Below, piece after piece: positions 26,653 to 34,046 of a stretch of 34,046 bases of DNA; the first letter of the stretch is position 1; each line of letters opens with the position of its first letter. This stretch comes from Sphaerobacteraceae bacterium (GTDB lineage: Bacteria > Chloroflexota > Chloroflexia > Thermomicrobiales > Thermomicrobiaceae), in the NCBI GenBank assembly GCA_007695115.1, contig REEK01000079.1, positions 1 to 34,046 on the forward strand, in the 5' to 3' direction. Made by a program: the position numbers and the translations under genes. The notes beneath the pieces were generated by a model that saw only the letters and a program-made list of their open reading frames with translations, ran no database searches and was not told where the DNA came from.

Positions 26653-29637
26653 TCAGTCTGGGGGGTCTGGGGGAGTAAACGACTTCAGCCAGGCTAACGT
26701 GGTTGCCGAATCGGTGGGATAGCCGAGGAGAAAGCCCTGAACGCGATCGCAGCCGAGTTCTATCACTCGTTCTCGTTGCGAAACGGTTTCAACGCCCTCG
26801 GCCACGACTTCCAGGCCAATGCCGCGAGTTAGTGCCACAATTACCTGCACCACACGATCCGAGGCGCTATTGCCGGCAAGGTCTCGAGCGAATGCCCGAT
26901 CAATCTTGATCGTGTCCAGTGGTAGTCGTACCAGTTTGCTCAGCGAGGAACTTCCCAGGCCGAAATCATCCATTGCAATCCGCACGCCGATCTCGCGCAA
27001 CCGGGAGAGGCGTTCGATCGAGCGATCCAGCTCAATCGCAACCGCGCTCTCGGTAAGCTCCAGTTCGAGCTGTGACGGAGCCAGTCGATGTCGATCAAGC
27101 GCCGAGGAAACGACGTCGACCAAGTCCTCGCGGTCGAGTTGAGTCGCCGAGATGTTGACCGATACGCCAATACGACGTCCCATCACGTCACTCCAACGAC
27201 TGGCTTCGTGGCACGCCTCATCCAGCACCCAGTTCCCGATCTCATTGATCATTCCGATCTCTTCGGCGATCGGAATCAATCGAGCAGGAGACACACTCCC
27301 GAGCACAGGGTTGAACCAGCGCAGGAGTGCCTCGAACATCTCAACACGATCCTCGCGCACGTTCCATTGCGGCTGAAAATGCACCTGTAACTCATGGTTC
27401 TGAAGCGCGGTGGTCAGTTGCAACGCAATCTCGTGTCGCTCTTCGGCAGCAGCGTTCATTGACGGTGAAAAGAAGCGAATGTCATTCTTGCCGGAGACCT
27501 TCGCCCGATACATTGCAACATCTGAACTGCGCTGAAGTCCGGCGACCGTCTGGGCGTCCTGCGGGTACAACGCCACGCCAATCGATGCACTCAACCGGAT
27601 TGGTCGACCCTCGATCGTGTATGGATCAACGATCGTTCTGAGCAGATCCTGAGCGACTGGCAACGCGTCTTCCGGCGCCAGCAATCCTTCCAGAATTGCA
27701 ATGAACTCGTCTCCACCGTGTCGGGCGAGCGTGTCGTTCCGTCGCAACCGCTCCTGCAGACGACGAGCAACGGTACAGAGTACGGTGTCACCCGCTGCAT
27801 GACCGAACGTGTCATTGACCATCTTGAACCCATCGAGATCCAGGAACACTACCGCGACAATCTTCCCGCTGCGCTCCGCCGAAGCAATCGCGTGCTCCAG
27901 CCTGTCTTCGAAGAGCGTCCGGTTGGGCAGTCCGGTCAGAGAATCATGTTGCGCCTGATGGGCCAGTTCAGCCCGGCTCTCTTCCAGCTCCGCAGTTCGC
28001 TCCCAGACCATCTGCTCCAGATTTTCGGACAGCCGGCGAAGCTCAGACGTTCGGGCCTCGACTTGCTGCTCGAGTGATTCGTTGAGCTGCTGCAGCTGGC
28101 GCGAGAGCTGCGCCTGCTGATGAGCATAGTCTTCCAGCGATTGCTCGATCTCCTTCCGCTCGGTGACATCATGGACGGTGCCGACCATGAGAGACGGTTC
28201 TCCGCTTTCATCTGGAATGAGTTCAGCCAGCGTGTGGATGACCCGTTGCTCCCCATCAGGGCGAATAATCCGATATTCAATGTCGTACTCGCCGAATCCC
28301 TGCTCCATTACCCGGTCTCGCTGAATTCGAACCATTGAGCGATCTTCGGGGTGAATAGCCAGAATGTATGATTCAGCGTTGCACTGATCTGCTGGATCGT
28401 CGGTGCCGAAGATGCGCATATGTTCCGGTGAGCACGAGAATGACCCGGTCTTGACATTGAATTCCCAATTGCCAATTCTGGCAATTCGCTGGGCCTCGGC
28501 CAGGCGGCGTTCGTTATCTTTCATTCGGGCCTCGGCTCGCTTCTGGGGGTCTATATCGGTGCAGGTACCGACCCACTCCAGAATCTTGCCCTCGTCGTCC
28601 TGTACTGGGAACGCCCGTCCAAGAAACCAGCGGTACTCATCCAGCTCGCGCGAATAGAACCGGTACTCGATCTCATACTTCGAGCCATCGCGCAATGCAC
28701 GGTTCCAGATCTGGAGTGTCCGCTCACGATCCTGTGGATGCAGAGCCAGGGAGAACCCGAACCCGAGCGACTCTTCCCTGCTCATTCCAGTGAATTCATA
28801 CCAGCGATCGTTATAGTAAAGATGATATCCACTCGGATCTGTCTGCCAGACCATTTGCGGCATCGCATTGGTCAACGTTCGATAGCGTCGCTCGCTTGCC
28901 AGCAGTTCACGCTGAGCGCGAACACTCTCGCTACTATCTTTGAAATAGACCGAAAGCATTTCCGGCGATGGATGGGCATGGACTTCAAACCAGGTTTCAA
29001 GGGGAGCATAAAAGAATTCGACCGATCGTGGAACAAAATCATCCATCGCCTGACGATAGGTTGGCCAGAGCACCGTCTCGGCTGACTCGGGAAACGCTTC
29101 CCAGACACTTTGCCCAATCAGTTCGTCCCGGTCGCGCATTAGCAACTCGGCTGCACGCCGGTTTACGTAGGTGAACCGGAAATCCGGATCGAGCGCGTAG
29201 AACGCGTCCGTAATGCTCTCCAGGATATCGCTCAGCTGCTCGTTGACATTCTGGAGATCACTGATGTCCCGAGATGTGCCGACGACCCAGGCACCCCCAT
29301 CATGGTCATAGCGGCGAAGAATGTATTCGAAAACACCGCTCCGTCCGGTGGGGCTGGTATAGGGTGTCGTTGCCCTGACGATTTCCCCGGTCTTCAGGAC
29401 GGAATCAATCTGTTGCTCGAGGATGTCTGCGAGGTCATCGTCCGCCACCAGTTCACGCATCGCGTGACCAACAACGTCATCGGATTCAACGCCCCACAGG
29501 TCGAGCATAGACTGATTAGCGTACACGAAAAAATAGTGGTCATCATAAATGAACACTAGATCGTTCACAGACGATAATGCCGCAAGAATTGCTTGCTGCC
29601 TGCGATCATATTGATTTCGGGCGAACTCGGTTGGCAC
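26653..29637 (-). CDS. Multi-PAS diguanylate cyclase/phosphodiesterase (GGDEF-EAL)
   Basis: A 994-residue cytosolic signalling protein controlling cyclic-di-GMP. Domains in order: four PAS domains at about 12-125, 135-245, 250-370 and 375-498 (the last two ending in PAC-type EWVGTCTDI and LMVGTVHDVTERK), a coiled coil at 498-560 (QLSRQLQQLNESLEQQVEARTSELRR), GGDEF at 565-725 and EAL at 735-985. GGDEF is intact (RHGGDEF, 641-645) with an RxxD inhibitory site RRND five residues before it. The EAL site is complete by eye: EALLRW, VNISATQL, LELTES, DDFGLGSSSL, KIDRAF, EGVET and QGFLLGYP. No membrane span, so it senses internal cues. The GTG at 29637 with GGAAGGG upstream is preferred to a TTG 12 codons earlier that has no ribosome site. 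Confidence 0.93.
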   Translation of the reverse strand: MPTEFARNQYDRRQQAILAALSSVNDLVFIYDDHYFFVYANQSMLDLWGVESDDVVGHAMRELVADDDLADILEQQIDSVLKTGEIVRATTPYTSPTGRSGVFEYILRRYDHDGGAWVVGTSRDISDLQNVNEQLSDILESITDAFYALDPDFRFTYVNRRAAELLMRDRDELIGQSVWEAFPESAETVLWPTYRQAMDDFVPRSVEFFYAPLETWFEVHAHPSPEMLSVYFKDSSESVRAQRELLASERRYRTLTNAMPQMVWQTDPSGYHLYYNDRWYEFTGMSREESLGFGFSLALHPQDRERTLQIWNRALRDGSKYEIEYRFYSRELDEYRWFLGRAFPVQDDEGKILEWVGTCTDIDPQKRAEARMKDNERRLAEAQRIARIGNWEFNVKTGSFSCSPEHMRIFGTDDPADQCNAESYILAIHPEDRSMVRIQRDRVMEQGFGEYDIEYRIIRPDGEQRVIHTLAELIPDESGEPSLMVGTVHDVTERKEIEQSLEDYAHQQAQLSRQLQQLNESLEQQVEARTSELRRLSENLEQMVWERTAELEESRAELAHQAQHDSLTGLPNRTLFEDRLEHAIASAERSGKIVAVVFLDLDGFKMVNDTFGHAAGDTVLCTVARRLQERLRRNDTLARHGGDEFIAILEGLLAPEDALPVAQDLLRTIVDPYTIEGRPIRLSASIGVALYPQDAQTVAGLQRSSDVAMYRAKVSGKNDIRFFSPSMNAAAEERHEIALQLTTALQNHELQVHFQPQWNVREDRVEMFEALLRWFNPVLGSVSPARLIPIAEEIGMINEIGNWVLDEACHEASRWSDVMGRRIGVSVNISATQLDREDLVDVVSSALDRHRLAPSQLELELTESAVAIELDRSIERLSRLREIGVRIAMDDFGLGSSSLSKLVRLPLDTIKIDRAFARDLAGNSASDRVVQVIVALTRGIGLEVVAEGVETVSQRERVIELGCDRVQGFLLGYPTDSATTLAWLKSFTPPDPPD

Positions 29638-29758
29638 CTGTTCGAACCCTTCCGCAAAAGTGAAACCAGACAATCAGGGATCTACAGCCACCGAGTCAGC
29701 GGTACTCAGTCAGGACGACACGTGCGTCTTTACGGCAATTCAGCACTCCACAAGACAT

Positions 29759-29989: not shown

Positions 29990-31486
29990 CTACTGTTCGA
30001 CCTGGCCAAACTGGCCAGAGGTAGGCTCTGCTCAGCAGAACCATGACTCGGACAGTCTGGGCGGTCGTCGCCAGCGCCGGCGTGGACGCTCGGGACGATC
30101 CGGTGGAGATTCGTCGGCTAACCGGTAGGTCGCATCCCGGATCAATGCGAAGGTCTCGTGCGGATCCGCATCACAGCTGGACGCCTCTTCCGAGATCCGG
30201 GCGATCTCGCGCTGGAGCTCGTCCACTCGTGGATCGGAGTGGGTCCAACGGTAGGTATAGGCAGCTTCGTCGAGCTCGCCAACCCAGGTCTCAGCATCGG
30301 GCTCGTCCAGCAACGCTGAACCTGGTGGAACCAGCAACCGGATCGAGAGATGCACCGGGTCGATATTCTCGATCATGTCGTGTTCGTCGATGAACTCCAG
30401 CAGTTCGATGTAGTCCTCGATGGTTGTCCATGGCGTAAACGGAAGCAATGACGGCCGCATCGCAATGCCGGCACGGTCGAGAATCCGGAGCGCTTCGACC
30501 ACATCTTCCTTGGTGTGTCCTTTATCGATCTTCTGCAGAACGAGTTCGCTGATCGATTCCACCGCAGAGATCACGAAGACACACCCGAGTTCGGCGAACT
30601 CCGGGAAGTGCTCCTGGTTCTCAATGATGTGCTCCACGCGCGTCGTCATGTCGAACGTCACGTGCGGAAATTCCTCGTGGAGTGCCCGGCAGATTCGCAA
30701 CGCGTGGGTTGGACCATTCAGAAAATCAGGATCACCAAATGTGATGTGGCCCACTCCAGCCTGAACCTGCTGTCGGATATCACTCATCACGATGTCCCGA
30801 GGTACGGCGAAGAATCGGCCCTTGTACACCGGAACGACCGGGCAATGCAGACAGGTATGGGCGCAGCCTCGGGTCGTCTCGGCGTACCCGGCAGGTACTG
30901 CCTTCCCATCGATCAACAGGTGCGCATACTCCTGCATCGGCGGCAGGGAGCTTCGATCAGGCTCGGGAAACGCAATCCGGATGATCGAGGGATCGGCTTT
31001 ACGTCCAGCCTCACCTACGCCTTCGATCAGCTCATTGGTTCCCCGCTCCGTGCGCTGGATGAGTTCGAGCAGCGGCTTTTCGTACTCGCCGCCGATTACG
31101 GCATCAGCGTAGTTTCGAAGCAGGTAGTCCGCGTTCATCCAGGCGTACATCCCGTAGAAGCAGATGAATGCCTTCGGGTTGAGTGCCCTGATTCGCTGGA
31201 CTACTGCTTCCCCCAACCGCAAAGCGGTGTGCATCGGCACGGAGATACCGACAAAGCGTGCCCGCCGGATCGCCGCTTCGCTCAAATCCTGGACACTGGT
31301 GTCAATTGCGTGCGGCTGATAACCAGCGCTCTGAACATAGGAGAGCGGAAATGCCAGGTTCAGGGGCTGATGGCCGAGTTCGTAGGTAGAGATCAACAAC
31401 ACCCCACCAGGGTCGCGAACGCCATCCCCATCGGTTCGAGTCGCCGCCTGCGCCGTTTCTGATTGCGTCACCATGTCGTCCGGCAT
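29990..31486 (-). CDS. B12-binding radical SAM selenoprotein with CUAEP tail
   Basis: The frame runs 498 residues if the in-frame TGA at 30034-30032 is read as selenocysteine (Sec485); otherwise it stops at 484. An N-terminal cobalamin-binding-like Rossmann domain (about 28-143; LLISTYELGHQPLNLAFPLSYVQSAGY, FVGISVPMHTAL) precedes the radical SAM core with C208-x3-C212-x2-C215 (TRGCAHTCLHC), the [4Fe-4S]/SAM site. The protein ends SWFC, then TGA, then Ala-Glu-Pro and ten further residues to a TAG. The Cys-Sec-Ala-Glu-Pro end matches the known CUAEP/CCAEP-tail radical SAM proteins, in which Sec or Cys occupies that site. A hairpin sits just after the TGA. The ATG at 31486 follows GGGGGT; a TTG 17 codons upstream lies before the likely -10 element. 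The reaction is unknown. Confidence 0.82.
30002..30034 (-). promoter_or_regulatory. SECIS-like hairpin downstream of the UGA
   Basis: On the minus strand, CTGGCCA (30018-30012) pairs perfectly with TGGCCAG (30008-30002) around loop GTT. The loop lies 21-23 bases after the TGA, the distance expected for a bacterial SECIS read by SelB, and it contains G-U as in known loops. It is inside the coding extension. Confidence 0.55.
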
Positions 31487-33670: not shown

Positions 33671-34046
33671 ATGGCACGGGCTTCACGGGAAATGCAGGCA
33701 TCCAGCAGGGCGAGCCAGCTTCCCGCTTCACCGATTCGACGACTGGCGCCACTGGCTGAAGCGGCCAAAGAGCGCGGCATTCATGTTCACCATCTCAACA
33801 TCGGGCAACCAGATCTGGCGCCGCCAGAGAGCATCACTCGTCTGCTGGAGCGCGCCAGCGGAGAAGAGCTCGTCTATGCTCCAGCGCGAGGCGCGTCCGA
33901 TGCCGTCAGCGCCTGGCAGATCTACTATTCACATCACAGTGTGGATCTGGAGCGGGAGGACATGCTGGTAACGGCCGGAGCCAGTGAGGCGCTCATGCTG
34001 GCACTGCTGACAACCTGTGATCCGGGCGATGATGTCTTGCTCCCCG
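33671..34046 (+). CDS. PLP-dependent aminotransferase, class I/II (partial)
   Basis: The frame is open to the end of the window, giving 125 residues of an N-terminal part. SPIRRLAPLAEAAKERGIHVHHLNIGQPDLAPPESI, LVYAPARGASDAVSAWQIYYS and MLVTAGASEALMLALLTTCDPGDDVLLP are standard aspartate aminotransferase-fold (fold type I) landmarks, with TAGASEA forming part of the phosphate-binding region. The lysine that binds PLP lies beyond the window. GAGGAG lies eight bases before the ATG at 33671. Substrate is not predictable from this portion. Confidence 0.88.
   Translation, partial: MARASREMQASSRASQLPASPIRRLAPLAEAAKERGIHVHHLNIGQPDLAPPESITRLLERASGEELVYAPARGASDAVSAWQIYYSHHSVDLEREDMLVTAGASEALMLALLTTCDPGDDVLLP

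What the first reader, a model, noticed from the sequence alone, without database searches (positions are those of the whole stretch)
29990..30060. In-frame UGA gives a CUAEP tail: a probable selenoprotein that standard annotation would truncate
The radical SAM frame ends SWFC then TGA; reading through gives Cys-Sec-Ala-Glu-Pro and ten more residues to a TAG at 29992-29990. The motif C-U/C-A-E-P at the C-terminus of B12-binding radical SAM proteins is, to my knowledge, an annotated family signature (CUAEP/CCAEP tail). Seeing it reproduced exactly after an in-frame UGA is hard to explain by chance. The enzyme's reaction appears to be undescribed.
Basis: partly seen in the sequence, partly recalled or inferred. 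Interest (0 to 1): 0.9.

Follow-up and report, generated by a model that had tools for sequence, protein, structure and literature searches.

The report
Selenocysteine-tailed radical SAM enzyme
A bacterial gene that looks cut short really continues through a "stop" codon read as the rare amino acid selenocysteine; this makes it a genuine member of an already catalogued but functionally unexplained enzyme family, which here turns out to travel with a small, recurring set of partner genes.

Summary
A radical SAM frame (window 31486-29990, minus strand) reads ...SESWFC-UGA-AEP-TSGQFGQVEQ-TAG. It is selenocysteine (Sec): the genome holds selA, selB, selD and tRNA-Sec(UCA). All 75 named homologues scored for the motif end in C-[UGA/UGC/UGU]-AEP (53 UGA, 22 Cys). 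A hairpin fixed about 20 nt after UGA covaries strongly in 80 Sec forms and is degraded in 36 Cys forms. The protein exceeds NCBI's curated cut-off for NF040546, "CUAEP/CCAEP-tail radical SAM (seleno)protein", so the family and its selenoprotein status are already known. Its reaction is not described in any text I could search.

New here: (1) the nearest characterised relative is arsinothricin enzyme ArsL, whose own tail (RCCLKC) carries a vicinal Cys pair alignable with Cys-Sec; 47 of 73 near-invariant residues are shared; (2) the gene travels with an ATP-grasp amino-acid ligase, a formyltransferase-like protein and an iron/Fe-S helper (YggX or NfuA). In the window's genome the three partners sit together on another contig, beside metK and ahcY.

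I infer an ArsL-like enzyme with a mobile Cys-Sec arm making an amino-acid-derived product. The selenoprotein claim is near-certain (0.97); the chemistry is a hypothesis (about 0.35).

The parts
29990..31486 (-). CUAEP-tail radical SAM selenoprotein gene, read through TGA (498 residues)
   Evidence: NF040546 739.9 bits, cut-off 500; alternative in-frame starts exist upstream (TTG 31537)
30032..30034 (-). in-frame TGA = selenocysteine codon (residue 485)
   Evidence: homologues have TGA or Cys codons here
29993..30031 (-). post-UGA tail AEP-TSGQFGQVEQ; AEP conserved, changed to SEP in three of 78 readable named homologues
30001..30019 (-). bacterial SECIS hairpin (8 base pairs with a GUU loop, or 7 pairs with an AGUUU loop), loop about 20 nt after UGA, inside the coding frame
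29990..29992 (-). true stop codon TAG
30842..30865 (-). radical SAM CX3CX2C motif (C208, C212, C215)
   Evidence: invariant in 76 sequences; PF04055 E=6e-14
31061..31399 (-). N-terminal Rossmann (B12-binding-like) domain, residues 30-142
   Evidence: PF02310 27.7 bits, below the cut-off of 32.1; fold matches to AprD4, OxsB, TsrM, MgmA

Best explanation
The gene encodes a genuine selenoprotein of the NF040546 family. SelB and tRNA-Sec decode UGA 30034-30032 as Sec, directed by the in-frame hairpin at 30019-30001, giving a C-terminal Cys-Sec-Ala-Glu-Pro arm. SHOWN by computation: family membership, complete Sec machinery, Sec/Cys interchange in homologues, Sec-specific covarying SECIS, B12-type radical SAM fold, kinship to ArsL, recurrent partner genes. 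INFERRED (about 0.35): like its nearest characterised relative ArsL, the enzyme cleaves SAM and joins a SAM-derived amino-acid fragment (3-amino-3-carboxypropyl) to a soft or heteroatom substrate. The mobile vicinal Cys-Sec pair would hold or reduce that substrate in the active site, as the terminal RCC pair of ArsL may. The amino-acid product would then be coupled by the ATP-grasp ligase and formylated by the formyltransferase-like partner, while YggX or NfuA keeps the Fe-S cluster intact.
For: Selenoprotein: selA 524 bits, selB 361 bits, selD, itself with an in-frame TGA, tRNA-Sec with anticodon TCA; NF040546; tails 53 TGA / 13 TGC / 9 TGT; 50 of 52 UGA-bearing genomes of the Chloroflexota set have selA, the other two being fragmentary; at least 11 Sec/Cys changes on the tree. 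SECIS: one register only, z=13.5 in 80 Sec forms against 2.0 in 36 Cys forms, pair types C-G/T-A/G-C and G-C/A-T exchanged; it fits the published bacterial SECIS rules (PMC13188914). Fold: pLDDT 93.6, AprD4 Z 27.2, MgmA 25.9, OxsB 25.6, TsrM 25.0. ArsL kinship: NF040542 E=1.6e-100; 47 of 73 near-invariant residues shared, C484/C485 aligned with the ArsL tail. Partners.
Against: No peptide or 75Se data exist. The single-sequence fold of the hairpin is not unusual (z=-0.9), so the SECIS claim rests on covariation. The protein fails the ArsL cut-off (337 against 450 bits), lacks the RCCLKC tail, and its loci show no recurrent arsenic genes. Several substrate-side residues differ (PMHTA against PLFDS). 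Alignment of a five-residue tail across a long gap is weak evidence of homology. No model coordinates were available to test whether the tail reaches the cluster. Neighbour genes differ between phyla, and ATP-grasp+YggX+Fmt-like occur without the rSAM in G318, G142 and G380 (G142 and G380 match Fmt only over a short stretch).
Confidence: 0.55

Rival explanations
1. A true selenoprotein of NF040546, but a cobalamin-dependent radical SAM methylase or a 5'-deoxyadenosyl-radical enzyme (as TsrM, MgmA or AprD4), with Cys-Sec as a thiol/selenol redox pair that resets the enzyme after turnover.
For: Best solved folds are AprD4 (Z 27.2), MgmA, OxsB and TsrM; Rossmann domain present; in the window's genome the partner genes lie beside metK and ahcY, and ahcY recycles the SAH left by methyl transfer.
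Against: PF02310 score is below its cut-off; the nearest characterised relative by sequence is ArsL, not a methylase (337 bits against 45 or less for the rest).
Confidence: 0.35
2. The Cys-Sec arm is a metal(loid) or soft-ligand binder (arsenite, selenide, mercury or similar) in a resistance or organometal(loid) pathway parallel to arsinothricin.
For: ArsL ends in a vicinal Cys pair and acts on As(III) (PMC8552651); the A. acidocaldarius ArsL-type cluster also holds an ATP-grasp protein related to those near CUAEP genes (E 1e-23).
Against: No arsR/arsM/arsB-type genes recur among CUAEP neighbours. The ATP-grasp family is broad.
Confidence: 0.2
3. TGA 30034-30032 is an ordinary stop; the AEP continuation is chance or a relic.
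For: Default gene calling ends there, as does the T. roseum CDS.
Against: Conserved tail in Sec and Cys forms, full Sec machinery, Sec-specific covarying hairpin.
Confidence: 0.02

Closest known systems
NF040546 rSAM_CUAEP, CUAEP/CCAEP-tail radical SAM (seleno)protein (NCBIfam equivalog)
   Same: Whole length (profile 1-467 of 468), tail motif, UGA/Cys alternation
   Different: Nothing defining differs; it is a member. The family has no described reaction in the texts searched
ArsL, arsinothricin biosynthesis radical SAM (NF040542; B. gladioli)
   Same: Core family; 47 of 73 near-invariant positions; C-terminal vicinal Cys pair
   Different: Below the ArsL cut-off; tail CUAEP-x10 on a longer linker rather than RCCLKC-COOH; Cys replaced by Sec; no arsenic gene cluster
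B12-type radical SAM enzymes AprD4, OxsB, TsrM, MgmA
   Same: Rossmann plus radical SAM fold
   Different: About 15-19% identity over the structural alignments; no CUAEP family signature by sequence profile; B12 binding untested here

Membership tests
NF040546 CUAEP/CCAEP-tail radical SAM (seleno)protein | score over the curated equivalog cut-off | tested here: met
   739.9 bits against 500
NF040546 CUAEP/CCAEP-tail radical SAM (seleno)protein | C-terminal C-[U/C]-A-E-P | tested here: met
Bacterial selenoprotein | selA, selB, selD and tRNA-Sec in the same genome | tested here: met
Bacterial selenoprotein | Cys-containing homologues at the UGA position, conserved on both sides | tested here: met
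Bacterial selenoprotein | SECIS: stem 4-16 bp, loop 3-9 nt, G in the first two loop positions, spacing 16-37 nt, MFE at most -7.5 (PMC13188914) | tested here: met
   8 bp, loop GUU (or 7 bp, AGUUU), spacing 19-20 nt, -14.6 kcal/mol for the 43-nt stretch; covariation
Bacterial selenoprotein | Sec found in the protein | not testable with these tools
   needs mass spectrometry or 75Se
ArsL (NF040542) | score over the curated cut-off | tested here: not met
   337.3 against 450 bits
ArsL (NF040542) | RCCLKC tail | tested here: not met
   tail is CUAEP-x10; only the vicinal pair corresponds
ArsL (NF040542) | arsenic gene cluster | tested here: not met
   no recurrent ars genes near CUAEP loci; rare or unrecognised cases not excluded
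Radical SAM superfamily | CX3CX2C and PF04055 | tested here: met
   53 bits against 29.5; Cys 208, 212, 215 invariant
Cobalamin-binding radical SAM | functional B12-binding domain | tested here: inconclusive
   PF02310 27.7 bits against 32.1; fold resembles both B12 binders and AprD4, which to my knowledge does not bind B12

The most novel reading that the evidence does not exclude
CUAEP proteins are the radical SAM core of an undescribed conserved pathway: Sec/Cys-armed radical SAM enzyme + ATP-grasp L-amino-acid ligase + formyltransferase-like enzyme + Fe-S helper (YggX or NfuA). It builds a small heteroatom-bearing amino acid or peptide by ArsL-type SAM cleavage, with selenocysteine as a substrate-handling arm.
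Probability: 0.3. Interest if true: 0.8.

Novelty: new member of a known kind. Interest (0 to 1): 0.48.

Why it matters
The gene is a clean, checkable case of a selenoprotein whose default gene model loses its conserved tail. The family is widespread (92 of 400 Chloroflexota genomes over the cut-off, and about a dozen phyla) and has no described reaction in the texts I could search. The ArsL kinship and the recurring partner genes turn "unknown radical SAM selenoprotein" into a specific hypothesis (ACP-type SAM cleavage, amino-acid ligation, formylation) with partners to co-express, and natural Sec/Cys pairs in close relatives allow a direct test of what selenium buys.

Tried and rejected
Chance or ordinary stop: rejected. 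ArsL membership: rejected on score and tail, kept as a functional lead. Literature: no paper in the held library contains CUAEP, CCAEP, RCCLKC or NF040546, none joins at least four of YggX, radical SAM, selenoprotein, ATP-grasp and formyltransferase, and a 2026 selenoproteome review has no hit for CUAEP, CCAEP or NF040546. Two NCBI papers on novel selenoproteins (J Bacteriol 2023; mSystems 2025) are not held, so a published note on this family cannot be excluded. Single-sequence folding as SECIS evidence: uninformative. Structure: no coordinates were returned, so the tail-to-cluster distance was not measured. Another radical SAM gene near the rSAM-less cassettes of G318, G142 and G380: none found with CX3CX2C in an ORF over 200 aa. 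YggX alone is not specific: three control genomes have it without the other genes. The 128-aa minus-strand neighbour family (cluster 6) lies at the place YggX occupies in other loci and is probably an antisense artefact.

Full report
WHAT IS THERE. The minus strand from ATG 31486 encodes a radical SAM frame that reaches TGC 30037-30035, TGA 30034-30032, GCA-GAG-CCT, ten further sense codons and TAG 29992-29990.

IS IT SELENOCYSTEINE? The window's genome (G000, 98.5% complete) has selA (524 bits), selB (361 bits), selD (367 bits, itself with an in-frame TGA) and a tRNA-Sec with anticodon TCA. All 30 best Chloroflexota homologues end in C-[TGA/TGC/TGT]-AEP. Among 80 named loci from about a dozen phyla, 53 have TGA, 13 TGC and 9 TGT in that motif. 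Of the other five, three have AEP changed to SEP (two with TGA, one Cys) and two run off their contigs. Codons were read in loci; no protein evidence exists.

CONTROLS. Of 52 genomes of the Chloroflexota set with the UGA form, 50 have selA; the two without are fragmentary assemblies. Of 44 with the Cys form, 42 also have selA, so selA alone does not predict Sec. On a tree of 103 family members and two ArsL-type proteins, Sec and Cys forms interchange at least 11 times (quick tree, 32 of 102 inner branches unresolved, and 6 changes forced by well-supported branches).

SECIS. Pairing after the UGA was scored on gap-free 54-nt tails. In 80 Sec forms one register stands out (sum 54; 81% paired against 66% when shuffled, z=13.5); no other register exceeds z of about 2.4. 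In 36 Cys forms the same register gives z=2.0, and the number of pairs differs between the sets at p=5e-14. Pairs exchange by double changes (C-G 37, T-A 16, G-C 6 at one position; G-C 30, A-T 29 at the next). Related sequences are not independent, so the z value overstates significance; the contrast with Cys homologues of the same family is the safer evidence. Published bacterial SECIS rules (PMC13188914) are met by the window: loop 3-5 nt, G in the first two loop positions, spacing 19-20 nt, -14.6 kcal/mol for the 43-nt stretch. Folding the one sequence alone is not remarkable (z=-0.9).

FAMILY AND FOLD. NCBIfam NF040546 (CUAEP/CCAEP-tail radical SAM (seleno)protein) scores 739.9 bits against 500, over the full length. 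The next family is ArsL, NF040542 (337 bits, E=1.6e-100, below its cut-off of 450). An AlphaFold model from 76 window and locus sequences has pLDDT 93.6; its closest solved folds are AprD4, MgmA, OxsB and TsrM. Whether B12 is bound is open: the Pfam domain is under its cut-off. Of 73 near-invariant family positions, 47 are identical in two ArsL-type proteins, including the radical SAM cysteines, and the aligner places C484/U485 on the vicinal Cys pair of the ArsL tail (...RCCLKC). That last step rests on five terminal residues across a long gap and is a lead only.

PARTNER GENES. Around 108 non-redundant loci, crude gene calling and clustering found an ATP-grasp ligase with an L-amino-acid-ligase C-terminal domain in 35, a formyltransferase-like protein in 29, YggX (Fe(II) trafficking) in 22, and DUF169 in 13. 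By phylum among the 80 named loci, YggX occurs beside the gene in Chloroflexota, Latescibacterota, Gemmatimonadota and one Pseudomonadota MAG; NfuA-like proteins take that place in Rokuibacteriota, Poribacteria, Ignavibacteriota, Bacteroidota, Acidobacteriota and SAR324; the ATP-grasp gene is near it in Chloroflexota, Nitrospirota, Rokuibacteriota and Ignavibacteriota. Across 401 genomes (400 of the Chloroflexota set plus the window's), strong YggX hits (E at most about 1e-27) and the main CUAEP clade co-occur in 66, with 4 and 9 discordant. That split into main clade and strong YggX was made after seeing the results, and shared ancestry inflates the p value. G246 and G370 have both while the listed genomes of their genera lack both.

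IN THE WINDOW'S OWN GENOME the partners are not beside the radical SAM gene, but they are together: ATP-grasp C64:103906-105135 (59% identical to a CUAEP neighbour elsewhere, E=1e-154), YggX 105247-105507, formyltransferase-like 105618-106418, followed by an epimerase, S-adenosylmethionine synthetase and adenosylhomocysteinase (these three products named from sequence by eye). The same set, with metK and ahcY, holds in nine further Thermomicrobiaceae genomes, and all four genes including the radical SAM lie together in G013 and G118. G318, G142 and G380 have ATP-grasp and YggX with a formyltransferase-like match (short in G142 and G380) without a CUAEP gene over the cut-off, and three control genomes have YggX alone.

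HOW IT MAY WORK. Shown: a Sec-bearing C-terminal arm on an ArsL-related radical SAM core, with partners whose families ligate amino acids, transfer formyl groups and service iron or iron-sulfur clusters. Inferred: ArsL transfers 3-amino-3-carboxypropyl from SAM to As(III) (PMC8552651); a relative with a Cys-Sec arm may do the same to another soft or heteroatom substrate, and the ligase and formyltransferase would finish the product. The methylase and metalloid alternatives are not excluded. No step of the chemistry was tested.

NOVELTY. The protein family and its selenoprotein nature are catalogued, so this is a new member of a known kind. The partner module and the ArsL tail correspondence were not found in the texts I could search, but two directly relevant NCBI papers were not held.

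Noticed in passing
L190 4874-7515 (genome contig C64:103873-106514): ATP-grasp ligase, YggX and formyltransferase-like genes clustered with metK and ahcY in Thermomicrobiaceae, unlinked to the radical SAM gene in the window's genome.
   Followed up: yes
L011 1501-2427 (genome C39:27511-28437): The genome's selD has an in-frame TGA and is itself probably a selenoprotein.
   Followed up: partly
L179 2430-3662: The ArsL-type cluster on an Alicyclobacillus plasmid also holds an ATP-grasp protein, distantly related to those near CUAEP genes.
   Followed up: partly
window 33671-34046: A pyridoxal-phosphate aminotransferase start lies two genes from the radical SAM gene; an aminotransferase near it recurs in nine loci, seven of them Thermomicrobiaceae-type.
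   Followed up: partly
L047 around 2866-2883: A Ktedonobacter-type homologue has a TAG shortly after the Sec UGA (CUAEPA then stop), so the tail after AEP is dispensable there.
   Followed up: no
L177 5950-7386: The T. roseum CDS named CUAEP/CCAEP-tail ends at the TGA, so the annotated protein lacks the tail it is named for.
   Followed up: yes
window 26653-29673: Large multi-PAS GGDEF-EAL protein (named by eye) directly downstream of the selenoprotein gene; no sign of functional linkage seen.
   Followed up: no
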